Shown here in pieces: positions 4,977-18,800 of a stretch of DNA of 62,923 nucleotides (its first letter is position 1; every line of letters starts with the position of its first letter). The position numbers and the translations under genes were made by a program. This stretch comes from an uncultured Acetobacteraceae bacterium (GTDB lineage Bacteria; Pseudomonadota; Alphaproteobacteria; Acetobacterales; Acetobacteraceae). The stretch covers positions 1-62,923 of the forward strand of contig CALMVI010000130.1 of assembly GCA_937873095.1 (NCBI GenBank). The letters run 5' to 3'. Below the pieces are notes generated by a model. That model saw nothing but the letters and a program-made list of their open reading frames with translations, made no database searches and was not told where the DNA came from.

Positions 4977-5027
4977 ACGGCTGGCCAGCGCAGAGACGAC
5001 GGGCCCCAACGCCTGAGCGGCGGGCCG

Positions 5028-6842
5028 TCACGCGTCGTTGACGGCAACCGTGCACAGCACCATCGCCAGGTGACTGAGCGCCTGGGGCATGTTGCCCAGC
5101 ATGTCCGACCCATCTGGGTCCATCTGCTCGTTGAGCAGGCCCAGATTGCCTCCGGTCGCCGCGAGCAGCGCATCCATTTCGCGGATCGCCACGGTCCGCT
5201 CGCCGAGCAGCGCGCGCGCCTCGACCGCCCAGAACGCACAGGCCAGGAACGTGCCCTCCTCCTCTTCCGCGCCGGAATAGCGATAGACCAGCGGCCCGCG
5301 GCCCAGTTCCCGCACGATCGCTGCCCGGGTCAGGGCCAGCCGCTCTCGCCGGTCGAAGCCGAACGGCAGGGCAAGCAGCACGGAAGCGTCCAGCCGTTCG
5401 GTGCCGGGGTGCATCGTGTAGCTCTGCTTGGCGTCCGACCAGCATCGGCTGTCGATCCACGCGCCGATCCGGTCGCGCTCGCGCCGCCAGCGGTCGGCGT
5501 GGCTGGCGTCGATCTGGCCCTGTTCGGCAAGCTTGGCCGCACGGTTCAGCGCCGACCAGCAGCCGATCTTCGACGTCGTGTAATGCTCCAGGTCAGGCAG
5601 CTCCCAAATGCCTGAGTCGAGCCCGCGCCACAAATCGGCGCAGCGGTCCGTCAGCTCGGCCAGCAGCCTGCGGGTCGCCAGGTCCAGCACGTGGCCCTGC
5701 TCCACGAACAGTGCGGCCACCTCCATCACGTCGCCGAACAGCCCGAGCTGCGTCTGATCGCGCGCCACATTGCCACGGCGCACCGGCCGGCTGCCGCGAT
5801 ATCCGGGCATGTCGAGCGTTTCTTCGGGCGGGGCCGGGGCGCCATCCAGCCGGAACATGACCCGCATCGGGGCGCCGTGGGCGCGTATGGTGTTGATCAG
5901 CCAGGCGAAGGAGGCGCGCGCCTCCTCGATCGCGCCGACCCTGAGAAAAGCTTTGATGGTGTAGGCCACGTCGCGCACCCAGGCGTAGCGGTAGTCGTAG
6001 TTCTTCGCCCCGCCCACGCGCTCCGGCAGCGCCATGGTGGCTGCAGCGGCGATCGCCCCGGTCGGCGAGTACAGCAGCAGCTTGAGCGCCAGCGCGCTGC
6101 GGCGCACCTGGCTCTGATACAGGCCGAGATAGGTCAGGTTGCCGGCCCATTCCCGCCAGGACTGGTCGGACCGGTCGATGCGTGCGTCGATCGACTCCAC
6201 GCTGGGCAGGATGAGCGGCTCGTCGGCCGTGGCGAGCCAGGCGAGCGTGCTGCGCGACCCGGGCCGGGTGGTCAGCACGGCGCGCAACAGCCCGTCCTCC
6301 TCGACGGTGCGGACCACGTCCTCGCTGGCGCGGAAAGCGGCCACCAGGCCGTCGATGTGGAGGATGGAGCAGTGCGAGACGGTCTCGCGCCAGGGGTTGG
6401 CCTGGTCCAGCCGCCGCCCCGGCCGCAACTCGACGAGCAGTTCGACCGAGCCGCTCAGCCCCTCCACCCGGCGGCCGAGCTCGGTCCAGGGCAGGCGGCC
6501 GGAGATGCCGCTGTTGAGGCTGTCGGTCACCCGGGCCTGGCCCGATGCGGTGGTGAACACCTGCTCCAGCACGTTGCTGTCCTGGCGGTAGGCGCGGGTG
6601 ACGGTGAACGGCTGGTCGGGGGTGATGGAGAAGCGGCCGCCCTGGTCGGCAGCGATCAGGCGGTCGAACACCGGCTCGCTGTCCAGGCCAGGCACGCACA
6701 GCCAGTCCACCGACCCGTCGGTGCCGACCAGCGCCACGCTGCGCCCGTCGCCGAGTGCGGCGTACTGGCCGAGCGGCAGCACGTCGCCGGTGCGGACCGG
6801 CTGCAGCCCGGGCCGCGCCTGCTCGGCTGGGGAGGCATCCAT
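5028..6842 (-). CDS. GH15-family glycoside hydrolase (glucoamylase/trehalase type)
   Basis: Cytoplasmic (alpha/alpha)6-barrel glycosidase of 604 residues. The N-terminal beta-sandwich contains YAALGDGRSVALVGTDGSVDWLC, of the GH15 type. The catalytic half shows YRYAWVRDVAYT, SGIWE (proposed general acid) and EEGTFLACAFW (proposed base). It ends with LGNMPQALSHLA, typical of bacterial GH15 proteins whose known activities include glucoamylase and trehalase; substrate cannot be decided here. The start codon overlaps the stop of the upstream SDR gene (ATGA), so the two are translationally coupled. The frame stays open further upstream through the SDR gene, but that part is a shadow. Confidence 0.88.
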   Translation of the reverse strand: MDASPAEQARPGLQPVRTGDVLPLGQYAALGDGRSVALVGTDGSVDWLCVPGLDSEPVFDRLIAADQGGRFSITPDQPFTVTRAYRQDSNVLEQVFTTASGQARVTDSLNSGISGRLPWTELGRRVEGLSGSVELLVELRPGRRLDQANPWRETVSHCSILHIDGLVAAFRASEDVVRTVEEDGLLRAVLTTRPGSRSTLAWLATADEPLILPSVESIDARIDRSDQSWREWAGNLTYLGLYQSQVRRSALALKLLLYSPTGAIAAAATMALPERVGGAKNYDYRYAWVRDVAYTIKAFLRVGAIEEARASFAWLINTIRAHGAPMRVMFRLDGAPAPPEETLDMPGYRGSRPVRRGNVARDQTQLGLFGDVMEVAALFVEQGHVLDLATRRLLAELTDRCADLWRGLDSGIWELPDLEHYTTSKIGCWSALNRAAKLAEQGQIDASHADRWRRERDRIGAWIDSRCWSDAKQSYTMHPGTERLDASVLLALPFGFDRRERLALTRAAIVRELGRGPLVYRYSGAEEEEGTFLACAFWAVEARALLGERTVAIREMDALLAATGGNLGLLNEQMDPDGSDMLGNMPQALSHLAMVLCTVAVNDA

Positions 6843-7747
6843 CAAGGCAGGTGGTTGCCTCCAGTGACGCCGTAGATCTCGCCGGTGACGAAGCTGCTCT
6901 CCTGGCTGGCGAGCAGCACGTAGATCGGCGCCAGTTCCGCCGGCTGGCCGGGCCGGCCGAGCGGAACCGACGAGCCGAGATCCGGTATCTTGCTCTGCGG
7001 CTGGCCGCCCGAAGTCTGCAGCGGCGTCCAGACAGGACCGGGTGCCACCGCGTTCACCCTGATGCCCTTGGCCGCCACCTGCTTGGCCAGCGCGTGGGTG
7101 AAGGCGACGATGGCGGCCTTGGTGCCGGCGTAGTCGAGCAGCATGGGCGCCGGCTGGTAGGCCTGGATGGAGGTGGTGTTGATGATGGTGGCGCCGGGCT
7201 GCATCAGCGGTATGGCGGCGCGGCACAGCCACATCATGGCGTAGACGTTGGTGCGATACGTCGCCTCGATCTGCTCGGTCGTCAGGTCGGCGATGTCCTC
7301 CACCGCGGTCTGCTTGCCCGCCACGTTGACCAGGATGTCCAGTCCGCCCATGCGCGCCTGGGCGTGACTGACGAGGCGCTGGCAGAACGCCTCGTCGCCG
7401 ATGTCGCCGGGCATCGGGAAGGCGCGTCGCCCGGCCTTCTCGACGAGCGCCACGACCTCGTCGGCGTCCTTCTGCTCGGAGTCCAGGTAGCTCAGCACCA
7501 CGTCGGCACCTTCGCGGGCGAAGGCGATGGCCGCGGCGCGGCCGATGCCGCTATCGGCGCCGGTGATGATCGCGCGGCGTCCGGCAAGCCTGCCGAAGCC
7601 GCGATAGCTCGTCTCGCCATGGTCCGGTTTGGGGTCCATCTCCTGGGCCAGGCCGGGTGCCGATTGCGGCTGCTTGTCGAATTTCGGCTGCGGATACTGC
7701 TTGGTCGGGTCCTGCATCGCATACTGGTTCGGTGTCTGGTCGGGCAT
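6842..7747 (-). CDS. SDR-family oxidoreductase, general-stress type
   Basis: NAD(P)-dependent short-chain dehydrogenase of 301 residues. A hydrophilic N-terminal extension of about 45 residues (QDPTKQYPQPKFDKQPQ) precedes the Rossmann fold. This layout resembles the YhdF/YdaD/YghA group of stress-associated SDRs. The cofactor motif is TGADSGIG; the catalytic set is the Ser of INTTSIQAY with Y-x-x-x-K in LLDYAGTK. It is the first gene of a two-gene operon with the GH15 hydrolase. The pairing suggests a role in osmotic or desiccation stress with trehalose or glucan turnover, which is inference. The substrate is unknown. Confidence 0.88.
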   Translation of the reverse strand: MPDQTPNQYAMQDPTKQYPQPKFDKQPQSAPGLAQEMDPKPDHGETSYRGFGRLAGRRAIITGADSGIGRAAAIAFAREGADVVLSYLDSEQKDADEVVALVEKAGRRAFPMPGDIGDEAFCQRLVSHAQARMGGLDILVNVAGKQTAVEDIADLTTEQIEATYRTNVYAMMWLCRAAIPLMQPGATIINTTSIQAYQPAPMLLDYAGTKAAIVAFTHALAKQVAAKGIRVNAVAPGPVWTPLQTSGGQPQSKIPDLGSSVPLGRPGQPAELAPIYVLLASQESSFVTGEIYGVTGGNHLP

Positions 7748-7830
7748 CGTCCCTCTCCCTGGCTGGTGTCGTGGAACGTGACGGCCGGACGCGGGTTTGG
7801 GTTGCGCACGGGATCAGGCGAGAGGGTGAC

Positions 7831-8322
7831 ATGACGCAGGGGTCGGCCGCATCGGTCAGGTTCACGGTGGAGGAGCGCGAGGACGTGCCGGTGCTGGGCC
7901 TGGTGATGGGCGGCTCGGCAATGGTCCCGTTCCCCCTGCTGACGCTCGCTGCCTGGCTGGCGCGGGGAGCGTGGTCGGGCCTGGCGATGACGTGGCTGGT
8001 CTGCTGGGGTGCCGCGATCCTGGCGTTCCTCGCTGGCGTCAGGCGCGGGCTCAGCTTCCGCACCCCTGGCGGCGAGCGCCCGGCGCAGATCGTGACCGTG
8101 GTCTGGCTGTACCTGCTGGCGGCGGGCGCGCTGCTTCTGCCCTGGATCCTCGGGCAGTTGGGCCTGCTTGCGGCCGGCTATCTCAGCCTGGCCGTGATGG
8201 ACCCGGCAGCAGCCAGGCGGCAGGAGGCGCCGCTGTTCTTCGCCCGGCTGCGGCCGTTGCAGATGACGGTGCCGCTGGCCTGCCTGGCGGCCGCGGGGTG
8301 GCTTGCCTGGCGGCGCGGCTGA
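7831..8322 (+). CDS. DUF3429-like integral membrane protein
   Basis: A 163-residue protein with about four predicted membrane helices after a short acidic N terminus. The segment AAILAFLAGVRRGLSF matches the characteristic motif of DUF3429 proteins (loop Gly-Gly-x-x-Trp/Arg-Gly). The function of this family is not known. The start at 7831 is supported by GAGAGGG a few bases upstream. The frame is open further 5', but that part runs antisense to the SDR gene. It is transcribed divergently from the SDR/GH15 pair, 83 bp away. Confidence 0.75.
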   Translation: MTQGSAASVRFTVEEREDVPVLGLVMGGSAMVPFPLLTLAAWLARGAWSGLAMTWLVCWGAAILAFLAGVRRGLSFRTPGGERPAQIVTVVWLYLLAAGALLLPWILGQLGLLAAGYLSLAVMDPAAARRQEAPLFFARLRPLQMTVPLACLAAAGWLAWRRG

Positions 8323-8380
8323 AACCAAGCAGCCGGCGCGGCGTAACCCTGCCCGACCGCGAGGCCGAGGAGTCCCATCC

Positions 8381-8656
8381 ATGCCGATCTTCCACATGAA
8401 ACCGATACCGGCCCGGATGGACGACCCGGCATGGAGCAGCAGCAGGCTGCGCGGCGAATGCTGGGTGAACGGCGCTGACGAAGCCGAGGCGCGCGAACTG
8501 GCCAGCGGGCATTGCCAGGACGCGGCAGGGACCGTGCCAGGCGAGCCGAGCCCGCACAGCGCCTGGCGCGATCCGGACCTGGTGCAAGCAACATTGCTGG
8601 AGCCCGGCGCCATGAGCATTCCGAACGGCGTCGTCGTGGTCACCAACCAGGCCTGA
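8381..8656 (+). CDS. Small conserved hypothetical protein
   Basis: A 91-residue soluble protein beginning MPIFHMKPIPARMDDPAW, preceded by GAGGCCGAGGAG. It reads RGECWVNGADEAEARELA, followed by a C-terminal IPNGVVVV strand. I have the impression that small proteins of this pattern occur in other Alphaproteobacteria, but cannot name a domain. There is no signal peptide, membrane helix or cysteine pair. It lies 58 bp after the DUF3429 gene on the same strand and may be co-transcribed. Confidence 0.6.
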   Translation: MPIFHMKPIPARMDDPAWSSSRLRGECWVNGADEAEARELASGHCQDAAGTVPGEPSPHSAWRDPDLVQATLLEPGAMSIPNGVVVVTNQA

Positions 8657-8864
8657 TTGCTCTCGGGCCGACAACCGGGCGGCGCCACTGCGCTGGGACA
8701 CCCGACGGCAGGTTGCGCACTTGGATTGCACGCGCATGCAGCCGCGATCGGAACGCAGGGAGAATTGACAAGTCACGAGCCTGTGAAGGATCATCTACTT
8801 TCCTGAGGTTTGTTCGTGAGGTTAGTGTCGATTCGATGAACAGTCCCGCGAACGGATTCCGGTA
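8657..8864 (+). promoter_or_regulatory. Leader and probable promoter region of the glycan locus
   Basis: This 208-bp gap precedes the seven-gene glycan operon. TTGACA at 8765-8770 is a perfect -35 hexamer. Seventeen bases downstream lies GGATCA, a poor match to a -10 box. The candidate is therefore weak, but no better one is visible. No convincing ribosome site lies just before the ATG at 8865. I see no coding sequence here. Confidence 0.35.
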
Positions 8865-9968
8865 ATGCCAGAGACCATTCTGATCACCGGCGGCGCAGGC
8901 TTCATCGGAACCTACGTCGCCCATGCGTTGCTGGCAGCAGGCCATCGCGTGCGTGTGCTCGACAGCCTGATCGAACAGGTGCATCCGCCGGGTGCGCGCA
9001 ACCCGGTGCTGAACGAGGTCGAATTCATCCGGGGCGACGTTCGGGACCCCGGAATCGTCGAACGCGCGCTGACCAGGGTGGACAAGCTGGTGCACCTTGC
9101 GGCCGAGGTCGGCGTCGGTCAGAGCATGTATGCGATCGACCGCTACGTTTCGGTCAACGATCATGGCACCGCGGTTCTGCTGCAGGCGCTGATCAAGCAC
9201 CGCGTGGGCCGCGTGGTGGTCGCGTCCTCGATGAGCATCTACGGCGAAGGGCGCTACGTCACGCCGTCCGGAACGATCGTCGACGACGCGATGCGCCGCC
9301 CGGGCGACAGCAACTGGAACCCTGTGGGCCCGGACGGGGACGTTCTGGTTCCGGTGCCGACGCCCGAGGCCAAGCCTGCAAGTCTCGCCTCGGTTTACGC
9401 GATATCGAAGTTCGTCCAGGAACGCCTGACGCTGACCGTTGCGCCGGCCTACGGCATGCAATCCGTGGCGTTGCGGCTGTTCAACGTCTATGGTGCGGGC
9501 CAGGCGCTGTCCAACCCCTATACCGGCGTGCTGGCGATCTTCGCTTCGCGGCTGCTGAACGGGCAACGCCCTATGGTGTTCGAGGACGGCGCACAACGGC
9601 GCGACTTCGTGCATGTGGAGGACGTGGCGCGCGCGTTCCTGCTGGCGCTGGACGAGCCGGCCGCCGATGGCGGCGTGTTCAACATCGGCAGCGGCCAGAG
9701 CGTGAGCGTGTCCGAGGTGGCCTGCAGTTTCGCCGCCGCCATGGGCCGCCCCGATCTTACGCCGGAGATCACCGGCAAGGCGCGCACCGGCGACATACGC
9801 AACTGCTTCGCCGACATCACGCTGGCGCGCGAGAAACTCGACTTCCATCCGCGCAGGAGTTTCGAGGACAGTTTCGACGAGTTGGCGGAGTGGGTTTCGC
9901 GGCAGACCGCAGTGGACCGCGTGGCGGAGGCACGGCGAGAGCTAGAGACGCACGGCCTGGTCGCATGA
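8865..9968 (+). CDS. NAD-dependent sugar epimerase, dTDP-L-rhamnose 4-epimerase-like
   Basis: Extended-SDR nucleotide-sugar epimerase of 367 residues and first gene of the glycan operon. The Rossmann motif is TGGAGFIG; VVASSMSIYGEGRY supplies the catalytic Ser region and SVYAISK the Y-x-x-x-K pair. The SSMSIYGEG stretch and overall length resemble dTDP-L-rhamnose 4-epimerases (WbiB/Tll type), which make dTDP-6-deoxy-L-talose. UDP-glucose 4-epimerase is the main alternative. Its stop overlaps the next start (ATGA). Its product is presumably the donor for one of the four downstream glycosyltransferases. Confidence 0.8.
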   Translation: MPETILITGGAGFIGTYVAHALLAAGHRVRVLDSLIEQVHPPGARNPVLNEVEFIRGDVRDPGIVERALTRVDKLVHLAAEVGVGQSMYAIDRYVSVNDHGTAVLLQALIKHRVGRVVVASSMSIYGEGRYVTPSGTIVDDAMRRPGDSNWNPVGPDGDVLVPVPTPEAKPASLASVYAISKFVQERLTLTVAPAYGMQSVALRLFNVYGAGQALSNPYTGVLAIFASRLLNGQRPMVFEDGAQRRDFVHVEDVARAFLLALDEPAADGGVFNIGSGQSVSVSEVACSFAAAMGRPDLTPEITGKARTGDIRNCFADITLAREKLDFHPRRSFEDSFDELAEWVSRQTAVDRVAEARRELETHGLVA

Positions 9969-11857
9969 TCGAGCCGCATCACGCGGAGCGGCTAGGGTTT
10001 TGCGCGAGTTTCGCCGTGGGCGATCACGCAGCGGTCGAGCGGGCGCAGACGCGGCTGCACGGGCTTGGCGCGCGCCACCTGCGCGTTGCGCTGCGCACGG
10101 CCGAGCTTGCCGAAGATGCCTGGCTCGGCTGGATGCTGGCTCGCCTGAGCGAAGGGTTGGAGCTGTTGCCGAGCCTCGACGCGGCGTCGGCAGAGCCTGG
10201 CCTCCCGCGATTTCTCGATGCGCACGACCGTCACTTCCGCGTTTTCGAATGGACGGATTCGCGGAACGATGCCGACGCGGCAAGCGCCTTGACGGCCGCC
10301 ACACGGGCTGCGGCCGGGCGAGGCAAGCAGGTCGTGTTCGGGCTGGACGCGAACGGGTGTGAGGAGCGCCTGCATGCGCTCGGAGGGCGCGCGCTCGACG
10401 CAGTGGCGGCGGTCGGCCTGCACGTGGAGGCCGGCGGGGCCGCGCAGATCGACGGCCCTGCGCTCGATGGCCCGACGCTGGACGAGCGTCTCGGTGCTGC
10501 GGAGCGTGCCGTGCGCGATGCCAACCCGCGCGCGCGGCTGTGGATCACGCAGGCAGGGCGCTCCACCTGGCGGCACGAGATCGCCCTGCAGGCCGAGGCG
10601 TTTCTTGGCGCGCTGTCGTGTTCGGCGGAGCGCGTGTACTGGCGCGACCTGACGGACGACAGCCGGGCCGACCCGCGCGATGCGGACGCGCATTTCGGCA
10701 TCGACGACCGGGCTGGCGAGCCGAAATGCCTGGGCCGCCTGCTCGCCCGCGGGGTGGCCGGGGTGGAAGACCTCGTCGCCCTCACCCGCGGCCGCAACAC
10801 GGGTTTTGCCGGCAATGTCAGGCCGGTGCTGGTGACAGGCGGCGCAGGGTTCATCGGCGCCAACCTGGCCGATCGGCTGGCATCGGCCGGACACCACGTC
10901 GTGCTGTACGACGCGCTGGCGCGCGCCGGCGTGGAACGCAACGTGCGCTGGCTTGCGCGCCGCCACCCGACCCGCATCGCCCTGGTCCTGGCCGATCTGC
11001 GCGACGAAGCGGCGTTGAGCGAAGCCGCAAGCCAGGCCTGCGCCGTCTTCCACCTCGCGGGCCAGGTCGCCGTTACCACCAGCATGGCAAGCCCGCTCGC
11101 GGATTTCGAGGTGAACGCGCGCGGCACGGTTACCTTGCTGGAGGCGCTGCGGCGGCGCAATCCGCAGGCGCCGCTGATCTTTGCAAGCACCAACAAGGTC
11201 TATGGCGATCTCGCCGACATCGATCTGGTGCGCGAGGACGATGCCTACCTGCCGCGAAACGCAGAGCTGCGGTCGCGCGGCATCGGCGAGGCGCGGCCGC
11301 TCTGCTTCCACACCCCTTACGGTTGCAGCAAGGGCAGCGCGGACCAGTACGTGCTCGACTATGCCCATAGTTTCGGGCTGCGCACGGCGGTCCTGCGGAT
11401 GAGCTGCATCTACGGCGAGCGGCAGCTCGGAACCGAGGACCAGGGCTGGGTTGCGCATTTCCTGCTGCGCGCGATCGCGGGCGAGCCGCTGACGATCTAC
11501 GGCGACGGCCGGCAGGTGCGCGACGTGCTGCATGTGGGCGACGCGGTGGATGCCTACATGGCTGCCTGGGCGAACATCGACGCGATTGCCGGCCGCGCCT
11601 ACAATCTTGGCGGCGGGCCGGGCAACGCGATCAGCCTGCTGCATCTGGTCGAACATCTCGAAGCGCTGCTGGGCAGGCGCATCGACGTGGATTTCTCGGC
11701 CTGGCGGCCAGGCGACCAGCGATATTTCGTGGCCGACACGGCGGCGATCCGCCGCGACCTCTCGCTGCCTGCGCCGCTGCATTGGCGGGACGGCCTGACC
11801 CGGCTCGCCGGGCATTTCGGTGCGGTCAGCGCACCGGTGACGGAGGCGGCGCTGTGA
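9965..11857 (+). CDS. Hybrid: glycoside-hydrolase-like domain fused to CDP-paratose-2-epimerase-like SDR
   Basis: A 630-residue two-domain protein. Residues about 1-280 resemble a TIM-barrel glycoside hydrolase; the pattern LWITQAGRSTWR, then AERVYWRDLTDD, FGIDD and PKCLG follows the C-terminal half of such barrels. The position where retaining hydrolases have a catalytic Glu (W-I-T-E) is Gln196, so the domain may bind rather than cleave sugar. Residues about 285-630 form an extended SDR with TGGAGFIG, Y452-x-x-x-K456 (in HTPYGCSKGSADQYV) and DQGWVAHF, best matching CDP-paratose 2-epimerases (RfbE). The start overlaps the previous stop and its stop overlaps the next start (GTGA). The epimerase part is clear; the hydrolase assignment is tentative. 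Confidence 0.75.
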   Translation: MIEPHHAERLGFCASFAVGDHAAVERAQTRLHGLGARHLRVALRTAELAEDAWLGWMLARLSEGLELLPSLDAASAEPGLPRFLDAHDRHFRVFEWTDSRNDADAASALTAATRAAAGRGKQVVFGLDANGCEERLHALGGRALDAVAAVGLHVEAGGAAQIDGPALDGPTLDERLGAAERAVRDANPRARLWITQAGRSTWRHEIALQAEAFLGALSCSAERVYWRDLTDDSRADPRDADAHFGIDDRAGEPKCLGRLLARGVAGVEDLVALTRGRNTGFAGNVRPVLVTGGAGFIGANLADRLASAGHHVVLYDALARAGVERNVRWLARRHPTRIALVLADLRDEAALSEAASQACAVFHLAGQVAVTTSMASPLADFEVNARGTVTLLEALRRRNPQAPLIFASTNKVYGDLADIDLVREDDAYLPRNAELRSRGIGEARPLCFHTPYGCSKGSADQYVLDYAHSFGLRTAVLRMSCIYGERQLGTEDQGWVAHFLLRAIAGEPLTIYGDGRQVRDVLHVGDAVDAYMAAWANIDAIAGRAYNLGGGPGNAISLLHLVEHLEALLGRRIDVDFSAWRPGDQRYFVADTAAIRRDLSLPAPLHWRDGLTRLAGHFGAVSAPVTEAAL

Positions 11858-13146
11858 GGGTGGCACTCGTCAACCCGCCCTGGCATTTCGAGAACAGCAT
11901 CTATTTCGGCTGCCGAGAGCCGCATCTGCCGATCGAGCTCGGCGCATGCAAGGTGCTTCTGGAGCGTTCAGGCCACGATGTGCTCATGCTGGACGGGCAC
12001 ATCAACGCAACCTCCGCCCAGGATCTCGCCCAGGCGGTTGCCGATTTCGCGCCGCAGATCACCGTGGTTCCGACCGCGCCGAGCTACCTGTTCTGGCGCT
12101 GCGCGCCGCCGGAACTGCGTGTGCCGCGCGAGATGGTGGCGGCACTCGACGGGCGTGGCGGAACAATCGTCGCCGTGGGGCCGCACGGATCGTCCACGCC
12201 GCGCGCGACACTTCGTAAACTCGGCGTCGACGTGGTGGTTCGCGGCGAGTGCGAGGAGGCGGTGCTGGCGCTTGCCGATGCCTGGCCGCGCACCGACGTG
12301 CCCGGTGCGGCCACACTGGTGCACGGCGAGCTGCGCCTGACGGGCGGCGTGCAGGCCACGCGTTTCACCGATCTGCCCGCCCTGCGCTGGCCGGACGGCT
12401 GGGTGGCGCGCCACCACCACCACCATCACCGCTTCGACACGACGCCCGCCGGTCCCGGCGCCGAAGTGGAAGCGTCCCGCGGGTGCCCTTACCACTGCAC
12501 GTTTTGCGCGAAGATCGATTTCCGCGACGGCTATCGTCGGCGAGACCTGCCCGTCCTGCTGGACGAGATCGATGCGCTGCGGGCACAGGGCGCCGGCTAC
12601 CTCTATTTCATCGACGAGATATTCCTGCCGCAACCGGCCTTGCTCGAAGCGCTGGTCGGGCGGAACATCACGTTTGGCATGCAGACGCGTATCGATCTGT
12701 GGAAGCCGGCGATGCTGGAACTGCTTGGCCGCGCCGGCTGCGTGTCGATCGAGGCGGGCGTGGAAAGCCTGACCGAAGACGGCCGCGCAGCGCTCGACAA
12801 GCTGTGCCGGATGAGCACGGACGACCTGACCGACCGGCTGATCACGGCGCGCCGGCATGTTCCCTTCGTCCAGGCCAATCTGATCGAGATGCCCGGCGAT
12901 GATTCCGGCCAGATCGACGCGTGGCGCGCCCGTATGCAGGCGGGCGGCGTGTGGGCCAACGATCCGGTGCCGATGTTTCCCTACCCCGGCAGCCCCGATT
13001 ACCGCCAACGCTGGGGCGCGCCCGACGACGACGCGTGGGAACGCGCGCTCGACCACTACCTCGGCCAGTTCGCGCAATTTTCCGACATCCAGGAGTCGGC
13101 GCCGCTCAGCCTGTCCGCACTGGAAGCCGACTGCCTGGCGGCATGA
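11854..13146 (+). CDS. B12-binding-type radical SAM protein
   Basis: A 430-residue protein with an N-terminal cobalamin-binding-like Rossmann domain (RVALVNPPW, IELGACKVLLERSGHDVLMLDGH) and a radical SAM domain with the [4Fe-4S] cysteines C211, C215 and C218 (CPYHCTFC). Further on are YFIDEIF and the strand SIEAGVES. Residues 187-192 are six consecutive histidines just before the cluster. The reaction is unknown; proteins of this class perform methylations, rearrangements or ring contractions, and its operon suggests a sugar or glycolipid substrate. The GTG start is preceded by GGAGG at good spacing and overlaps the upstream stop. Confidence 0.85.
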   Translation: MRVALVNPPWHFENSIYFGCREPHLPIELGACKVLLERSGHDVLMLDGHINATSAQDLAQAVADFAPQITVVPTAPSYLFWRCAPPELRVPREMVAALDGRGGTIVAVGPHGSSTPRATLRKLGVDVVVRGECEEAVLALADAWPRTDVPGAATLVHGELRLTGGVQATRFTDLPALRWPDGWVARHHHHHHRFDTTPAGPGAEVEASRGCPYHCTFCAKIDFRDGYRRRDLPVLLDEIDALRAQGAGYLYFIDEIFLPQPALLEALVGRNITFGMQTRIDLWKPAMLELLGRAGCVSIEAGVESLTEDGRAALDKLCRMSTDDLTDRLITARRHVPFVQANLIEMPGDDSGQIDAWRARMQAGGVWANDPVPMFPYPGSPDYRQRWGAPDDDAWERALDHYLGQFAQFSDIQESAPLSLSALEADCLAA

Positions 13147-14240
13147 ACACGGTGGCGGACCCGATATTCGTCACCACCGATGCGGTCGGAGGCGTGTGGA
13201 GCTACAGCGTGGCGCTGGCGCGCGGCCTGGCCGAGGCGGGTCTGTCCAGCGTGCTCGCCGTGATGGGACCGCGCGCGCAGCCGGCGCAGCGGGACGCCGC
13301 GGCCGGCATCGCAGGCTGCCGCCTGCTGGACACCGGTCTGCCGCTGGACTGGACCGCAGCCAGCCGCGGCGAACTGGACACGGCCGTGCTGGCGTTGCTG
13401 GAACAGGCGCGCGCCGCGGGGTGTCGCGCCGCCCATCTGCATGCCCCGTGCCTCGCATCCCGGCCATGGCCCATGGCGACTGTCGCGGTTGCGCATTCCT
13501 GCATGGCGACGTGGTGGGACGCCGTTCGCGGCGGCGCGCGCCCGCCCGACATCGCCTGGCACCACGCGGCCACGGCCGAGGGTCTTGCGCTGGCCGATGC
13601 GGTGATCGCGCCCAGCGGCGCATTCGCGGCCGCGCTCGCCCGGGTGTACGGGCCTGAACGGCCGGCGACCGTCGTGCATAACGGCCTGAACCAGCCGCCC
13701 CTGCATCGTTCGCAACGCCGGCGCGCGGTGCTGACAGCCGGGCGCCTGTGGGACACAGGGAAGAACGTGGCCGTGCTCGACGCGGCTGCGGCGTTGCTGG
13801 ACGTGCCGGTGCTGGCGGCGGGTCCGGCCAGCGCGCCGGATAGCTCGGGGCAGGAGTTTGCGCATTTGCGCGGCATCGGCAACCTGCCGCCAGCGGTGCT
13901 GCACCGGCTTATGGCGGAGACCGCGATGTTTGCAGCACCCTCGCTGTACGAGCCGTTCGGGCTCGCGGTCCTCGAGGCGGCGCAGCAGGCGGCAAGCTTG
14001 ATCCTGTCCGACATCCCCACGTTTCGGGAGTTGTGGTCCGGGGCTGCCATTTTCGTGCCGGCCAGCGATCCGGTGGCCTGGGCAAGCGCGATCGCCGCCC
14101 TTGCCGACGACGACGGACGCGCGGCCGAACTGGGTGCTGCCGCGTTGCAGCGGTCGCGCCGCTACACTTTGGACGCGACCGTGTCTGCAACGCTGGAGGT
14201 TCATCGCAGGGTCGGCCAGCGCGCGCTGCACGCCGCCTGA
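13143..14240 (+). CDS. GT4-family glycosyltransferase
   Basis: GT-B-fold retaining glycosyltransferase of 365 residues. The N terminus FVTTDAVGGVWSYSVALARGLAEAG is a typical acceptor-side start. The donor half contains AVLTAGRLWDTGKN and the E-x7-E signature in EPFGLAVLEA, followed by a Pro/Thr-rich DIPTFRELW. No membrane segment is visible, so it acts on the cytoplasmic face. The start ATG overlaps the radical SAM stop (ATGA). The donor sugar is unknown. It differs clearly from the three CgeB-like transferases that follow. Confidence 0.85.
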   Translation: MNTVADPIFVTTDAVGGVWSYSVALARGLAEAGLSSVLAVMGPRAQPAQRDAAAGIAGCRLLDTGLPLDWTAASRGELDTAVLALLEQARAAGCRAAHLHAPCLASRPWPMATVAVAHSCMATWWDAVRGGARPPDIAWHHAATAEGLALADAVIAPSGAFAAALARVYGPERPATVVHNGLNQPPLHRSQRRRAVLTAGRLWDTGKNVAVLDAAAALLDVPVLAAGPASAPDSSGQEFAHLRGIGNLPPAVLHRLMAETAMFAAPSLYEPFGLAVLEAAQQAASLILSDIPTFRELWSGAAIFVPASDPVAWASAIAALADDDGRAAELGAAALQRSRRYTLDATVSATLEVHRRVGQRALHAA

Positions 14241-14248
14241 CGCCGGGC

Positions 14249-15349
14249 ATGCGCTTCGTCTATTTCACCCACTCGCTCGTCTCCTGCTGGAACAACGGCA
14301 ACGCGCATTTCCAGCGCGGCGTGCTGCGCTCGCTGCGCAAGCTGGGCCATGACGTCGCGGCCTGCGAGCCGGCCCACGGCTGGAGCCTGGCCAACCTCGT
14401 CGCCGATCAAGGCCGTGCGCCGGTGGAGGCCTTCGGCCGCATGTTTGCCGGGCTGCCGTCCCTGACATACTCCTGCGTTGACGAGTTGGCGCGGGCGGTC
14501 GACGGCGCCGACGTGGTGATCGTGCACGAATGGAACGACCCTGCAATCGTCAGCGAGATCGGCAGGCTGCGCCGCCAGATGCGGTTTACCCTGTTGTTCC
14601 ACGACACGCATCACCGCGCCGTCAGCGAGCCGGACGCGATCCGGCATTTCGACCTGTCCGGCTACGACGCGATCCTGGCGTTCGGCGCCGCACTCGCCCG
14701 CATCTACGAGCGCTGGGGTTGGACGGGACGATCATTCGTCTGGCACGAGGCAGCCGACACCGCGCTGTTTACGCCCCCCGCCGAGGAGCGGCACCGCCAC
14801 GGCGCGGTGTGGATCGGCAATTGGGGCGAGGGCGAACGCACCGCCGAGATCGAGAATTTCCTGCTGGACCCGGCACAACGGGCCGGCGTGACACTGGATG
14901 TGCACGGCGTGCGCTATCCGCAGGAGGCGCGCGCCATGCTGGACCGCTACGGCGCGCGTTACCACGGGTGGATCGCCAATGCGGCGGTGCCCGACACCTT
15001 CGCCGGGCATGCGATGACCGTTCACGTGCCGCGACGCTATTACAGCCGGGTGCTTCCCGGGATACCGACGATACGCGTCTTCGAGGCGCTGGCCTGCGGC
15101 ATACCGCTGATCAGCGCACCGTGGCAGGACAGCGAGGGCCTGTTCCGCACCGGCACGGACTACCTTTTGGCGAGGACGGGCGAGGAGATGACGACGCATA
15201 TGCGCATGCTGGGCCACGAACCCGGTCTGGCCCGCACGCTGGCGCAAGCAGGCTTGTCGCGCATCCGGTCCCGTCACAGTTGCGACGTGCGCGCGGCCGA
15301 ACTGCTCGGCATCGTTGCCGGACTGCGTAGCACACCGGCCGCCGCCTGA
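14249..15349 (+). CDS. CgeB-like glycosyltransferase, paralogue 1
   Basis: A 366-residue GT-B-type protein of the CgeB/Glyco_trans_1_2 group. It begins MRFVYFTHSLVSCWNNGNAH, sharing the S-x-W-x-N-G pattern and the following LGHDV with the next two genes. The C-terminal third has IRVFEALACGIPLISAPW, the donor-site element of this group, followed by a small Arg-rich tail. It starts 8 bp after the GT4 stop; the frame is open further upstream inside the GT4 gene but without homology. One of three tandem paralogues, presumably adding successive or alternative sugars. Confidence 0.82.
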   Translation: MRFVYFTHSLVSCWNNGNAHFQRGVLRSLRKLGHDVAACEPAHGWSLANLVADQGRAPVEAFGRMFAGLPSLTYSCVDELARAVDGADVVIVHEWNDPAIVSEIGRLRRQMRFTLLFHDTHHRAVSEPDAIRHFDLSGYDAILAFGAALARIYERWGWTGRSFVWHEAADTALFTPPAEERHRHGAVWIGNWGEGERTAEIENFLLDPAQRAGVTLDVHGVRYPQEARAMLDRYGARYHGWIANAAVPDTFAGHAMTVHVPRRYYSRVLPGIPTIRVFEALACGIPLISAPWQDSEGLFRTGTDYLLARTGEEMTTHMRMLGHEPGLARTLAQAGLSRIRSRHSCDVRAAELLGIVAGLRSTPAAA

Positions 15350-16443
15350 TGCGCATCGCCTTCTACGGGTCCAGCCTGCTTTCGTCGTACTGGAACGGTG
15401 CGGCCACCTATTACCGCGGCCTGCTGCAAGCCCTGGCGGCGCATGGTCACGACATCACCTTCTACGAGCCGGATGCGTTCGACCGGCAGGCGCATCGCGA
15501 CATCGATCCGCCCGATTGGGCGAGGGTCGTGGTCTATCCCGCAACGGCCGCAGGCGTGCAGCACGTGCTGTCGAAGGCGTCGCTCGCCGACGTGGCTGTC
15601 AAGGCCAGCGGCGTCGGCGTGTACGACGACGAGCTGCTGGCCGGCATCGTGCGTCACGCACGCCCCGACGCGCTGCGCCTGTTCTGGGACGTGGACGCGC
15701 CGGCGACGCTGGCGACGCTGCGCACCGCGCCCGACCACGTCCTGCACCGCGTGCTGCCGGAGCTCGACATGGTGCTGACCTATGGCGGCGGCCCGCCCGT
15801 CGTGCGGGCCTACACCGAGTTCGGCGCACGCGCCTGCGTTCCGATCTATAACGGGCTCGACCCCGCCCTGCACTTCCCCGTCGCACCCGATCCGGCCTTT
15901 GCGGCGGATCTGGGCTTTCTGGCCAACCGCCTGCCCGACCGCGAAGCACGCGTCGAGGATTTCTTCCTGCGCCCGGCTGGCCTGTTGCCGGACAGGCGCT
16001 TTCTGCTCGGCGGCTCCGGGTGGGCCGACAAGCCAATGCCGGCCAACGTCCGTCGCCTGGGGCACGTGCCGACGTCGCAGCACAACGCGCTGAACTGTTC
16101 GGCGCTCGCGGTGCTCAACGTCGCGCGCGACAGCATGGCGGCAACCGGCTTCTCCCCGGCAACGCGCGTGTTCGAAGCGGCGGGCGCTGCTGCCTGCGTG
16201 ATCACCGACGCGTGGGAGGGAGTCGAACTCTTCTTCGAGCCTGGCCGAGAAATCCTTGTGGCGCGCGACGGGGCGGACGTGGCCGAGATCCTGCGCACGC
16301 TCACGCCGCAACGCGGCCAGGCGATCGGGCAGGCGGCGCGGTCCCGCTGTGTGTCGCAGCACAGCTACGCCCGGCGCGCCGGCGAGGTGGACGTCCTGCT
16401 GCGCGACATGCAGGCCCGCCGCCGGTCGAGTGCCGCGGCGTGA
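15349..16443 (+). CDS. CgeB-like glycosyltransferase, paralogue 2
   Basis: A 364-residue relative of its two neighbours, starting MRIAFYGSSLLSSYWNGAATYYRG with GHDITFYEPDAFDRQ shortly after. The middle region has LRLFWDVDAPATL and MVLTYGGGPPV; the C-terminal donor region has TRVFEAAGAAACVITDAWEG. Start and stop of adjacent genes overlap by one base (TGATG) on its 5' side and by four (GTGA) on its 3' side. Family-level function (glycosyl transfer) is well supported; the sugars are unknown. Confidence 0.82.
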   Translation: MRIAFYGSSLLSSYWNGAATYYRGLLQALAAHGHDITFYEPDAFDRQAHRDIDPPDWARVVVYPATAAGVQHVLSKASLADVAVKASGVGVYDDELLAGIVRHARPDALRLFWDVDAPATLATLRTAPDHVLHRVLPELDMVLTYGGGPPVVRAYTEFGARACVPIYNGLDPALHFPVAPDPAFAADLGFLANRLPDREARVEDFFLRPAGLLPDRRFLLGGSGWADKPMPANVRRLGHVPTSQHNALNCSALAVLNVARDSMAATGFSPATRVFEAAGAAACVITDAWEGVELFFEPGREILVARDGADVAEILRTLTPQRGQAIGQAARSRCVSQHSYARRAGEVDVLLRDMQARRRSSAAA

Positions 16444-17525
16444 GCGTCGCGCCGCGGCGCATCGTCGTCATCGGCCTGTCCCTCAGCTCGTCCTGGGGCA
16501 ACGGACACGCCACCACGTATCGCGCGCTGCTCGGAGCGCTGGCGGCGCGCGGCCACGACATCCTCTTCCTTGAATGCGACCGCCCCTGGTACGCGCAGCA
16601 ACGCGACCTGCCCGATCCGGATTTCTGCAGGCTGGCGCTGTACGACACGGTGGACGACCTGGACGCGTTCCGGGGTGACATCGAAGCGGCCGACCTCGTC
16701 GTCATCGGCTCATACGTCGTGGACGGCATCGCCGTCGCCGAGCGCGTGCGTCCCTGGGCGGGTTTTCTGGCGTTCTATGACATCGACACGCCGGTGACGC
16801 TCGCGATGCTGGCGCGCGGGCAGGCAAGCTACATCTCGGCCGCCACGATCCCGCGCTACGACCTCTACCTGTCGTTCACCGGCGGCCCGACCCTGAATTT
16901 GCTGGAGAAGCGTTACGGCGCGCACAGGGCGCACGCGCTGTTCTGCGCAGTCGACCCGGCGTTGTACCGGCCCGCCCCGCTTCGGCCGTTCCGATGGCAA
17001 CTGGGCTATCTCGGAACCTACAGCGCAGACCGGCAACCGATGCTGGAGCGCCTGCTGCTGCAGCCCGCGCGACGCTCGCCCGACCTCCGCTTCGTTGTTG
17101 CCGGGCCGCAATACCCCGGCAACGTCGACTGGCCGGCCAACGTCGAACGGATCGAGCATCTGTCGCCGTGCGACCATGCGGAATTCTACAACAGCCAGGC
17201 CTGGACGCTGAACGTGACGCGCGCCGACATGGTGGCCGCCGGCTACAGCCCGAGCGTGCGGCTTTTCGAAGCATCCGCCTGCGCAACCCCCATCATCTCG
17301 GACGGCTGGGCGGGGCTGGGCGACTTTCTGACCGCCGGGCGGGAGATCGTGGTGGCGGACACAGCCGCGCAGGTGACGGCATGTCTCGCATGGCCGGAGC
17401 AGCGGCGGGCGGCCATCGGCCAAGCGGCGCGCGCGCGCGTGCTGGCCTCTCACACCGCGGCCCACCGCGCCCGCGAACTGGAAAGCCTTGTGGCCGCATC
17501 AGCGCCCGCGGCGCTGACCACGTAA
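16440..17525 (+). CDS. CgeB-like glycosyltransferase, paralogue 3
   Basis: A 361-residue protein and last gene of the glycan operon. It begins VSVAPRRIVVIGLSLSSSWG and continues NGHATTYRALLGALAARGHD, the same start pattern as paralogues 1 and 2. It is closest to paralogue 2, sharing FYDIDTPVTL, the LSFTGGPTL stretch and VRLFEASACATPIISDGWAG. The GTG start overlaps the previous stop. The frame is open several hundred bases upstream, but that part is a shadow of paralogue 2. The operon ends here, with a convergent tRNA-Lys gene 44 bp on. Confidence 0.82.
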   Translation: MSVAPRRIVVIGLSLSSSWGNGHATTYRALLGALAARGHDILFLECDRPWYAQQRDLPDPDFCRLALYDTVDDLDAFRGDIEAADLVVIGSYVVDGIAVAERVRPWAGFLAFYDIDTPVTLAMLARGQASYISAATIPRYDLYLSFTGGPTLNLLEKRYGAHRAHALFCAVDPALYRPAPLRPFRWQLGYLGTYSADRQPMLERLLLQPARRSPDLRFVVAGPQYPGNVDWPANVERIEHLSPCDHAEFYNSQAWTLNVTRADMVAAGYSPSVRLFEASACATPIISDGWAGLGDFLTAGREIVVADTAAQVTACLAWPEQRRAAIGQAARARVLASHTAAHRARELESLVAASAPAALTT

Positions 17526-17568: not shown

Positions 17569-17644
17569 TGGTGAGCCCGGTGGGAATCGAACCCACGACC
17601 CCAAGATTAAAAGTCTCGTGCTCTACCGACTGAGCTACAGGCTC
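17569..17644 (-). tRNA. tRNA-Lys (anticodon UUU)
   Basis: A complete 76-nt cloverleaf including an encoded CCA. The acceptor stem GAGCCTG pairs with CGGGCTC (one G-U), with discriminator A. The D arm contains TAGCTCAGTCGGTAGAGC, and the anticodon loop CTTTTAA is closed by CGAGA/TCTTG. The T arm is GTGGG-TTCGATT-CCCAC. The anticodon TTT identifies lysine. It lies downstream of the cyclophilin genes on the same strand. Confidence 0.97.
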
Positions 17645-17711: not shown

Positions 17712-18203
17712 TCAGGACGCGCCTGCGTCCGCCCCCAGCCTCGCTTTCACGATCCTGTCGGGGTCGGCCACCGACCCGCTGCCGCCGCTGCCGCGCTTGA
17801 TCTTGTCGATATGCTCCATGCCGTCCGTCACCTGCCCCCAGACGGTGTACTGCCCGTCCAGGTGCGGCGCCGGCGCGAACATGATGTAGAACTGGCTGTT
17901 GGCGCTGTTCGGGTCTCCCGTGCGCGCGGCGCCGACGGTGCCGCGCACGAACTTCGCCGTGCGGCTGAACTCGGCGGGAAGGTTGCCGTATTTGCTGCCG
18001 CTGGTGCCGGTGCCGGTAGGGTCGCCGCCTTGCGCCATGAACCCTTCGATGACGCGGTGGAACGGCGTTCCGTCGTAGAAACCTTCCCGTGCCAGCATCT
18101 TCACGCGTTCGACATGCTTGGGCGCCAAGTCGGGCCGCAGCTGGATGGTGACGCGGCCCGATTTGAGGTCGAGATACAGCGTGTTTTCCGGATCGTCAGA
18201 CAT
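17712..18203 (-). CDS. Cytoplasmic cyclophilin-type peptidyl-prolyl isomerase
   Basis: Small bacterial cyclophilin of 163 residues that accelerates prolyl isomerisation. FHRVIEGFMAQGGDPTGTG contains the catalytic Arg and the Q-G-G-D motif; NSQFYIMFAPAPHLDGQYTVWG completes the active-site wall. No signal peptide. I choose the ATG giving MSDDPENTLY because AAAGGAG lies seven bases upstream; a start seven codons earlier has no such support. It is a close paralogue of the secreted protein encoded 27 bp upstream, indicating a tandem duplication into cytoplasmic and exported forms. Confidence 0.92.
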   Translation of the reverse strand: MSDDPENTLYLDLKSGRVTIQLRPDLAPKHVERVKMLAREGFYDGTPFHRVIEGFMAQGGDPTGTGTSGSKYGNLPAEFSRTAKFVRGTVGAARTGDPNSANSQFYIMFAPAPHLDGQYTVWGQVTDGMEHIDKIKRGSGGSGSVADPDRIVKARLGADAGAS

Positions 18204-18230
18204 TGCTACTCCTTTGGCCGGCAAGGGCCG

Positions 18231-18800
18231 TTACTTCACGTCCGCCGCGACGCGCATGTGAATGATGCGGTCGGGCGCATCGACCTTTCCGTTGTCGTCC
18301 GCACTGCCGCGCTTGATCTTGTCCACGTTGTCCATGCCGGACACCACGTTGCCCCAGATCGTGTAGTTTCCGTCCAGGCTCGGCGCGGGGGCGAACATGA
18401 TGAAGAACTGGCTGTTGGCGCTGTTCGGGTCCTGGCTGCGCGCCGCGCCCACCGTGCCGCGCAGGAAATGCGCGGTGTCGCTGAACTCCGCAGGAAGGTT
18501 CGGATACTTGCTGCCGCCCTCTCCTGTTCCCGTCGGATCGCCGCCCTGCGCCATGAACCCCTCGATCACCCGATGGAACGGGGTTCCGTCGTAGAAGCCG
18601 TCGCGGCAGAGCTGCTTGACCCGTGCCACGTGCTTGGGCGCCAGATCGGGGCGAAGACGAATGACAACCCTGCCGGACGGCAGGTCCAGATACACCGTGT
18701 TCTGCGGGTCGAGCGCCGGTGCGGCCATCGGCACAGCATCCTGGGCGTGCGCCGCGCCGAGTGCGGCCACGCAGGCCGCCAGCAAAGCCCGTCTAAACAT
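18231..18800 (-). CDS. Exported cyclophilin-type peptidyl-prolyl isomerase
   Basis: A 189-residue periplasmic cyclophilin. A signal peptide [19 protein letters not shown] is followed by the mature domain with FHRVIEGFMAQGGDPTGTG and NSQFFIMFAPAPSLDGNYTIWG. The catalytic residues match those of its cytoplasmic neighbour. It probably assists folding of secreted or outer-membrane proteins. Its start overlaps the 3' end of coaD by 8 bp, so it belongs to the gyrA-coaD-cyclophilin transcription unit. Confidence 0.92.
   Translation of the reverse strand: MFRRALLAACVAALGAAHAQDAVPMAAPALDPQNTVYLDLPSGRVVIRLRPDLAPKHVARVKQLCRDGFYDGTPFHRVIEGFMAQGGDPTGTGEGGSKYPNLPAEFSDTAHFLRGTVGAARSQDPNSANSQFFIMFAPAPSLDGNYTIWGNVVSGMDNVDKIKRGSADDNGKVDAPDRIIHMRVAADVK

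What the first reader, a model, noticed from the sequence alone, without database searches (positions are those of the whole stretch)
8865..17525. Seven-gene coupled locus: two epimerases, B12 radical SAM protein, GT4 and three CgeB-like transferases
Almost every junction is a 1-4 bp start/stop overlap, so the genes are translated as one unit. Two nucleotide-sugar epimerases (dTDP-rhamnose-4- and CDP-paratose-2-epimerase-like) could supply rare deoxysugars, and four transferases could assemble them. A cobalamin-type radical SAM enzyme in the middle suggests an unusual C-C or methyl modification of the glycan. No flippase, polymerase or export gene is present, so the product may be a short cytoplasmically made oligosaccharide or glycolipid. 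Role and product are inference.
Basis: partly seen in the sequence, partly recalled or inferred. Interest (0 to 1): 0.65.

Follow-up and report, generated by a model that had tools for sequence, protein, structure and literature searches.

The report
Conserved uncharacterised bacterial oligosaccharide gene cassette
The seven genes are one half of a conserved sugar-assembly cassette found in many Alphaproteobacteria, most likely building an inositol-containing short sugar chain that a vitamin-B12 radical enzyme decorates only in some species; the product is unknown.

Summary
Seven genes (8865-17525) lie head to tail, overlapping by 1-4 bp at five of six junctions. The radical SAM protein is a full-length TIGR04295 member (702.8 bits, cut-off 400). 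The order recurs: of the 80 best relatives (286 found), 63 of 70 with enough flank carry all seven in order.

The locus is half of a system. In relatives a second block lies beside it: inositol-3-phosphate synthase, phosphatase, TIGR04290 methyltransferase, glycosidase, and in some a nucleotidyltransferase and a fourth CgeB-like transferase. Here it is on other contigs. In two overlapping genome samples every TIGR04295 genome also had TIGR04290 (10 of 10; 14 of 14).

The radical SAM gene is optional: four genomes keep the rest of the cassette with gene 2 abutting gene 4, and a tree needs at least three changes. It is best read as tailoring.

The N-terminal domain of gene 2 is a decayed glycosidase lacking both catalytic glutamates.

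Best reading: a soluble, inositol-linked hetero-oligosaccharide, perhaps under general-stress control. Enzyme kinds are known; product, inositol linkage and the radical SAM reaction are inference.

The parts
8865..9968 (+). G1: extended-SDR nucleotide-sugar epimerase (UDP-glucose 4-epimerase-like; substrate unknown)
   Evidence: PF01370 180 bits; best NCBIfam GalE 152.5 bits, below cut-off 262.3; best solved structure 4zrm UDP-glucose 4-epimerase 134.6 bits
9965..10804 (+). G2 N-terminal domain: decayed TIM-barrel glycosidase-like domain fused to the epimerase; both catalytic glutamate positions changed (D and Q)
   Evidence: 28.9-33.5% identity to fused domains of L094, L095, L119, L122, L125 (E 1e-15 to 1e-28 in a 7-row set); L094, L095, L119, L122 keep E at both positions; no Pfam hit in this part
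10805..11857 (+). G2 C-terminal half: CDP-tyvelose/paratose 2-epimerase-like SDR
   Evidence: 9rl0 260 bits and 1orr 253 bits, next 119 bits
11854..13146 (+). G3: B12-binding radical SAM protein, TIGR04295
   Evidence: 702.8 bits over 1-422/422, cut-off 400; C211, C215, C218 invariant in 40 rows; AlphaFold2 pLDDT 87.8; near full-length match to cobalamin radical SAM structures, Z 25-27 for the top entries
13143..14240 (+). G4: GT4 glycosyltransferase
   Evidence: PF13439/PF13692; best solved structures are phosphatidylinositol mannosyltransferase PimA (42 bits), then maltose-1-phosphate synthase (33) and 3c4q/3c48 (32; recalled as MshA), all in the C-terminal donor half
14249..15349 (+). G5: CgeB-like GT-B glycosyltransferase
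   Evidence: PF13524 115 bits
15349..16443 (+). G6: CgeB-like GT-B glycosyltransferase
   Evidence: PF13524 133 bits; no solved relative at E 0.01
16440..17525 (+). G7: CgeB-like GT-B glycosyltransferase
   Evidence: PF13524 131 bits
17569..17644 (-). tRNA-Lys(TTT) bordering the cassette
   Evidence: ARAGORN; same border in a same-genus genome

Best explanation
The locus is the glycan-building half of a conserved Alphaproteobacterial cassette that makes a short, soluble hetero-oligosaccharide in the cytoplasm. The other half, on other contigs of this genome, makes inositol phosphate (Ino1-type synthase), removes phosphate (histidine phosphatase), activates a sugar (nucleotidyltransferase), methylates (TIGR04290), and adds a fourth CgeB-like transferase, a glycosidase and, in this genome, a PIG-L-type deacetylase, a further GT4 and a GNAT acyltransferase. 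Proposed working order (inferred): epimerases G1 and G2 supply nucleotide sugars; G4 and/or the second GT4 start the chain on inositol or its phosphate; G5-G7 and the fourth CgeB-like transferase add residues; the TIGR04290 methyltransferase and, where present, the B12 radical SAM enzyme G3 decorate the chain or a building block. G3 is an optional tailoring enzyme, most likely a C-methylase, less likely an AprD4-like dehydratase or another radical rearrangement. Shown: gene content, order, co-inheritance, dispensability of G3, decay of the G2 glycosidase domain. Inferred: inositol linkage, order of steps, G3's reaction, soluble product, stress role.
For: Order conserved in 63 of 70 loci with enough flank; 10 truncated loci are all consistent. 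TIGR04295 genomes that also carry TIGR04290: 10 of 10 among 398 genomes and 14 of 14 among 385; the samples overlap and both include the own genome (Fisher p 4e-17 and 8e-24, not corrected for relatedness). The link holds on separate contigs (own genome, G527, G578) and about 450 kb apart in the single-contig genome G709. MIPS, MT or XYL lie within 10 kb in 57 of 65 long loci. The own genome holds CG4-NTP-MT-XYL-PIG-L-GT4-GNAT on C137, MIPS-HISP on C128 and a UDP-xylose-synthase-like SDR on C155; G527 has the same C137-type block. G3 is absent with G2C abutting G4 (gap -4 to +17 bp by aligned start) in four genomes that keep G1, G2C, G4-G7 and UXS; at least three changes on the tree. G3 fold: OxsB, TsrM, MgmA, AprD4 at Z 25-27. 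G4's best solved relative is PimA, which acts on phosphatidylinositol. EcfG-type motif upstream of G1 in 17 of 81 and of MIPS in 24 of 61 loci.
Against: No product, substrate or expression data. The G4 match to PimA is weak and limited to the donor half, and maltose-1-phosphate synthase scores as well as 3c4q/3c48. The Ino1 homologue is below the mycothiol-Ino1 cut-off (533 vs 638), and MIPS may only supply free inositol. Within 10 kb of the 80 loci the second-half genes are not universal: MIPS 56, MT 43, XYL 42, UXS 55, CG4 31, NTP 19, PIG-L 6, GNAT 2-3 (many loci are cut by contig ends). The stress motif is absent upstream of G1 in the window; 12 of the 24 MIPS hits are Mesorhizobium, and one control position (upstream of G5) also scored 9 of 84. 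Seven of 70 loci miss a gene or exceed my spacing limit. The cassette is patchy: TIGR04295 in 14 of 385 class genomes.
Confidence: 0.5

Rival explanations
1. The cassette makes a membrane-anchored glycolipid (for example a glycosylated phosphatidylinositol) on the inner leaflet rather than a soluble oligosaccharide.
For: No flippase or polymerase is named in the annotated cassettes; G4's best solved relative is the phosphatidylinositol mannosyltransferase PimA; PIG-L-type deacetylase on C137.
Against: No lipid-biosynthesis gene is named within the cassette in the five annotated relatives (incomplete tables); the histidine phosphatase and inositol-phosphate synthase fit a soluble acceptor at least as well.
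Confidence: 0.25
2. An ordinary secreted or surface polysaccharide cluster, with export and polymerisation genes encoded elsewhere.
For: Several glycosyltransferases plus epimerases are typical of surface-glycan loci (recalled); the two halves of this system can lie apart.
Against: In five annotated relatives no flippase, polymerase or exporter is named in the cassette; the recurring inositol synthase, phosphatase and glycosidase are unusual for such loci (recalled).
Confidence: 0.12
3. A narrower form of the best explanation (not exclusive with it): an aminoglycoside-like or mycothiol-like specialised metabolite, an inositol pseudo-oligosaccharide that is deacetylated, re-acylated and C-methylated by G3.
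For: Ino1-type synthase of the mycothiol family (533 bits), PIG-L and GNAT in the own genome, G3 fold close to AprD4, which was solved with the pseudodisaccharide paromamine.
Against: PIG-L and GNAT are found beside few cassettes (6 and 2-3 of 80); no MshC-type ligase or aminotransferase was looked for; G3 is no closer to AprD4 than to TsrM or OxsB.
Confidence: 0.2

Closest known systems
NCBIfam TIGR04295 (B12_rSAM_oligo) and TIGR04290 (meth_Rta_06860) hypothetical equivalogs
   Same: G3 and the C137 methyltransferase score above the curated cut-offs; the two families co-occur.
   Different: The names give no function. A wider description as a 'rhizo-twelve' system is recalled and came from no call. 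No paper in the held library contains TIGR04295, TIGR04290, Rta_06860 or rhizo-twelve.
Cobalamin radical SAM enzymes (TsrM, OxsB, MgmA, CysS, TokK) and the related AprD4
   Same: Same two-domain fold over most of the length; best entry of each at Z 19-27; CX3CX2C motif.
   Different: 14-20% identity; substrate and reaction unknown; conserved histidine stretch before the cluster motif.
CDP-tyvelose 2-epimerase (1orr, 9rl0)
   Same: G2 C-terminal half, 253-260 bits.
   Different: No gene named for the CDP-paratose pathway beside it in annotated relatives; fused here to a decayed glycosidase domain.
Mycothiol / GlcN-inositol pathway (Ino1, MshA, MshB)
   Same: Ino1-type synthase, PIG-L deacetylase and GNAT in this genome, GT4 transferases distantly related to 3c48 (recalled as MshA).
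   Different: Many more transferases, a radical SAM enzyme, methyltransferases; Ino1 homologue below the mycothiol cut-off.
PslG (GH39 by recall)
   Same: The profile of the standalone glycosidase matches PslG from the acid/base motif on (E 2e-6, positions 3-166).
   Different: The standalone protein is circularly permuted; the fused domain in the window lacks the catalytic glutamates.

Membership tests
TIGR04295 (B12_rSAM_oligo) | Score above curated cut-off over the full model | tested here: met
   702.8 bits vs 400, 1-422 of 422
TIGR04295 (B12_rSAM_oligo) | Same multi-gene surroundings as other members | tested here: met
   63 of 70 loci with enough flank in the same order
Cobalamin-dependent radical SAM enzyme | B12-binding domain plus radical SAM domain with CX3CX2C | tested here: met
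   PF02310 36.5 (cut-off 32.1), PF04055 44.8 (29.5); C211/C215/C218 invariant in 40 rows
Cobalamin-dependent radical SAM enzyme | Binds cobalamin and transfers methyl | not testable with these tools
   Top fold matches mix methylases, OxsB and AprD4; AprD4 working without B12 is recalled
CDP-tyvelose 2-epimerase | Closest solved relatives are 2-epimerases | tested here: met
   260 and 253 bits, next 119 bits
CDP-tyvelose 2-epimerase | Acts on a CDP-sugar | not testable with these tools
   Needs an assay
UDP-glucose 4-epimerase GalE (G1) | Score above curated GalE cut-off | tested here: not met
   152.5 bits vs 262.3; filed only as epimerase-like
CgeB-like glycosyltransferases (PF13524) | PF13524 above gathering score | tested here: met
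   115, 133 and 131 bits vs 25
Retaining clan-A glycosidase (G2 N-terminal domain) | Two catalytic glutamates | tested here: not met
   Window D and Q; E and E in L094, L095, L119, L122
Mycothiol pathway | Ino1 above the mycothiol_INO1 cut-off | tested here: not met
   533.2 vs 638
Mycothiol pathway | MshC cysteine ligase | not tested
   Not searched

The most novel reading that the evidence does not exclude
A previously undescribed class of stress metabolite in plant-, lichen- and soil-surface Alphaproteobacteria: an inositol-primed, methylated pseudo-oligosaccharide built by up to six GT-B transferases under the general stress response, with an optional B12-radical C-methyl mark that separates lineages.
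Probability: 0.2. Interest if true: 0.75.

Novelty: new variant of a known kind. Interest (0 to 1): 0.5.

Why it matters
The cassette recurs, patchily but with strongly conserved order, in Alphaproteobacteria whose record titles point to leaves, root nodules, lichens and soil crusts, yet the nine paper searches run here showed no paper on it. Its enzymes point to an unknown glycan, and the natural absence of the radical SAM gene from some cassettes gives a ready comparison for assigning the reaction of an orphan B12 radical SAM family. Knockout and metabolomics in tractable Methylobacterium strains could test it directly.

Tried and rejected
Considered and set aside: a deoxysugar pathway (no gene named as 4,6-dehydratase in the annotated cassettes; SDR names there are generic, so this is weak); a chance gene cluster (rejected); a radical SAM protein from an unrelated pathway (rejected).

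Led nowhere: six paper searches for family names or the gene combination returned no paper, two stress-regulon searches likewise, and one on CgeB/radical SAM returned 48 papers, of which I saw ten titles with the starts of their abstracts, none on this cassette. No paper was opened. G6 has no solved relative at E 0.01. Fold searches with the permuted glycosidase gave only generic TIM barrels (best Foldseek E 2e-4; Z up to 13.8), so they neither confirm the permutation nor name a GH family; the permutation rests on sequence. GC content shows no island signature.

Results against my reading: no EcfG-type match upstream of G1 in the window; control upstream of G5 9 of 84 (11 of 84 with the wider spacer), the nine all at one aligned coding site; 12 of 24 MIPS-upstream hits are Mesorhizobium. 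Swapping the glycosidase pieces did not raise the scores of the two decayed domains (L003 unchanged, window lower). G518 (L124) has TIGR04290 without TIGR04295 but its contig starts inside G5, so it was not counted as a clean absence. Of the five family members fetched for the tRNA-Lys site besides the same-genus one, L152 showed no tRNA-Lys in 12 kb.

Dropped rows: only the best 80 of 286 relatives were available; 10 of the 80 were too short for the order count; the tree used 67 of 89 rows after dropping near-copies; upstream regions under 200 bp were left out; one search's list of long N-terminal extensions includes mere open frames, of which I kept six by similarity, and L125 was added. The output was cut.

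Full report
What is there. Seven + strand genes occupy 8865-17525 as described: G1 8865-9968, G2 9965-11857, G3 11854-13146, G4 13143-14240, G5 14249-15349, G6 15349-16443, G7 16440-17525. Five of six junctions overlap by 1-4 bp; G4/G5 has an 8-bp gap. Profile searches give SDR epimerases (G1, G2 C-terminal half), B12-binding plus radical SAM (G3), GT4 (G4) and PF13524 transferases (G5-G7). G3 is a full-length TIGR04295 member (702.8 bits, cut-off 400). The flanks are ordinary: a GH15 enzyme and an SDR upstream; tRNA-Lys, two cyclophilins, a CoaD-like protein and gyrase A downstream (CoaD is my reading, Pfam gives CTP_transf_like).

It is a conserved unit. A scan of genome contigs found 286 relatives of G3, of which the best 80 were returned. 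Of these, 70 had enough flank: 63 carry G1-G2C-G3-G4-G5-G6-G7 in order; the seven others lack one or two genes or exceed my spacing limit (L005, L009, L034, L037, L043, L064, L073; L073 does have G1). The ten truncated loci are all consistent. Record titles include Methylobacterium, Mesorhizobium, Azospirillum, Belnapia, Roseomonas, Inquilinus and Lichenifustis. The distribution is patchy: 14 of 385 class genomes.

It is only half of a system. Five annotated plasmid relatives (their gene tables are incomplete) show more genes alongside: inositol-3-phosphate synthase and histidine phosphatase (3 of 5), TIGR04290 methyltransferase (5 of 5), standalone 'beta-xylosidase' (3 of 5), a UDP-glucuronate-decarboxylase-like SDR (3 of 5; two named so, one by similarity), and in Bradyrhizobium also a fourth CgeB-like transferase, a nucleotidyltransferase and a phosphopentomutase. 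One of the five (L096) lacks G2. Over the 80 loci, within 10 kb and partly cut by contig ends, MIPS is found in 56, histidine phosphatase in 53, MT in 43, XYL in 42, UXS in 55, the fourth CgeB-like gene in 31, NTP in 19 and PIG-L in 6; 57 of 65 long loci have MIPS, MT or XYL. In the window's own genome the second half is on other contigs: fourth CgeB-like transferase, nucleotidyltransferase, TIGR04290 methyltransferase and glycosidase, followed by PIG-L, GT4 and GNAT genes, on C137; MIPS and histidine phosphatase on C128; a UDP-xylose-synthase-like SDR on C155. Genome G527 has the same C137-type block.

Co-inheritance across genomes. In the phylum sample (398 genomes) TIGR04295 occurs in 10 and TIGR04290 in 14, all 10 shared. 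In the class sample (385) the numbers are 14, 16 and 14. Both samples include the own genome and share at least G131 and G315. Fisher p is 4e-17 and 8e-24, without correction for relatedness. The two genes are on separate contigs in the own genome, G527 and G578, and about 450 kb apart in G709, a single-contig genome.

The radical SAM gene is optional. The four TIGR04290-only genomes of the phylum sample (G382, G265, G131, G283; L118-L121) keep G1, G2C, G4, G5, G6, G7 and UXS in order, and G2C abuts G4 (gap -4 to +17 bp by aligned start). No TIGR04295 match at E 1e-60 was reported in those genomes. A fifth, G518 of the class sample, is uninformative because its contig begins inside G5. On a quick tree of six concatenated core proteins (67 rows, thinned from 89) the four rSAM-less rows sit in three places among rSAM-bearing relatives; at least three changes are needed, also by starred branches alone. 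The count cannot give direction, but rSAM-bearing rows are spread over the whole tree, so repeated loss is the simplest reading. A tailoring role follows by inference.

What G3 may do. An AlphaFold2 model from 40 rows (pLDDT 87.8, pTM 0.90) matches cobalamin radical SAM structures over most of its length: OxsB Z 27.0, TsrM 26.2, MgmA 25.5, AprD4 25.4, CysS 23.8. These do not separate ring contraction, C-methylation and dehydration. C-methylation is favoured because it is the commonest reaction among the fold's relatives (recalled). H187, H190, H191, H192 and R193, just before the cluster motif, are invariant in the 40 rows; their role is unknown.

G2's extra domain is a decayed glycosidase. 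Residues 1-280 of G2 match N-terminal domains fused to the same epimerase in L003, L094, L095, L119, L122 and L125 (E 1e-15 to 1e-38 in a 7-row set). L094, L095, L119 and L122 keep both catalytic glutamates; the window has D and Q, L003 E and G with the surrounding motif lost, L125 A and G. Genome-wide, G265 (L119) and G315 (L122) have only the fused, intact copy, while the own genome and G709 (L125) have a strong standalone copy (549 and 611 bits) besides a decayed fused one; the standalone copies keep WNEPN and WVSEVG. For L094 and L095 only the plasmid was searched, and L003's genome was not. So the fused domain seems to lose its active site where a standalone enzyme exists; the sample is small.

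A side finding: the standalone glycosidase is a circular permutant. It starts at the WNEPN motif and ends with the strands that come first in the fused form. Swapping the pieces raises median scores from 86-93 to 114-130 bits for the four intact fused domains, though not for the two decayed ones, and in four fused copies profile positions 193-296 lie 5' of positions 4-186.

Regulation and setting. An EcfG-type motif (recalled: GGAAC-N16/17-[CGT]GTT) lies within 250 bp upstream of G1 in 17 of 81 loci and of MIPS in 24 of 61 (12 of these 24 are Mesorhizobium). The background rate over the loci predicts about 1.5 and 1.1 (0.018 per 250 bp). Controls: G2C 1 of 89, G4 0 of 91, G6 1 of 83, G7 1 of 80, G3 0 of 94 and XYL 0 of 46 with a slightly wider spacer, but G5 9 of 84, all at one aligned coding site. 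Rows are related, so these are not independent. The window has no match upstream of G1. The own C137 block has one starting 79 bp before the fourth CgeB-like gene, overlapping the end of the gene before it, and the G527 block has one near the same gene. General-stress control is therefore suggested for the family, not shown here. The cassette borders tRNA-Lys in the window and in a same-genus genome. Of five other family members fetched, four have gyrA-coaD-cyclophilin-tRNA-Lys and show no cassette in the roughly 9 kb beyond; the fifth showed no tRNA-Lys in the stretch. This fits arrival at this site in the genus; no integrase was looked for.

Mechanism. Shown: content, order, co-inheritance, optional G3, decayed G2 domain. 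Inferred from family knowledge: epimerases feed nucleotide sugars; a GT4 with weak, donor-half resemblance to PimA starts on inositol; CgeB-like transferases extend; the methyltransferase and G3 decorate; the product stays in the cytoplasm because no export gene is named in the five annotated cassettes. Alternatives are a glycolipid, a surface glycan, or more narrowly an aminoglycoside- or mycothiol-like metabolite.

Novelty. The two marker families already bear NCBI names, so this is not a new kind of system; the searches run here showed no paper on it. The split layout, optional radical SAM gene and decayed fused glycosidase make the window copy a new variant.

Noticed in passing
L040:4108-5019 (-) and relatives; own genome L104:3382-4326 (-): The cassette's standalone 'beta-xylosidase' is a natural circular permutant of a PslG-like barrel: it begins at the WNEPN motif and carries the first strands at its C-terminus.
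   Followed up: partly
window 12412-12432 (G3 residues 187-193): A conserved histidine stretch (six in a row in the window) precedes the radical SAM cluster motif in TIGR04295 proteins; the longest His run is 4 in 67, 6 in 28 and 3 in 2 of 97 homologue rows, some of them duplicates.
   Followed up: partly
window 17569-17644 and L151-L156: The cassette sits next to tRNA-Lys in this genus; four other family members with the same gyrA-to-tRNA-Lys order show no cassette there.
   Followed up: partly
window 17712-18800 (-): Two tandem cyclophilin genes (74% identity over residues 27-188), also tandem in the same-genus genome G791.
   Followed up: no
window 5028-7747 (-): GH15 enzyme with a trehalase-like N-terminus beside an SDR, conserved next to the cassette in L003.
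   Followed up: no
L122 (G315) 3992-13949: A rearranged cassette: G1-G5-G7-UXS, then fused glycosidase-G2C, G3, G4, G6.
   Followed up: no
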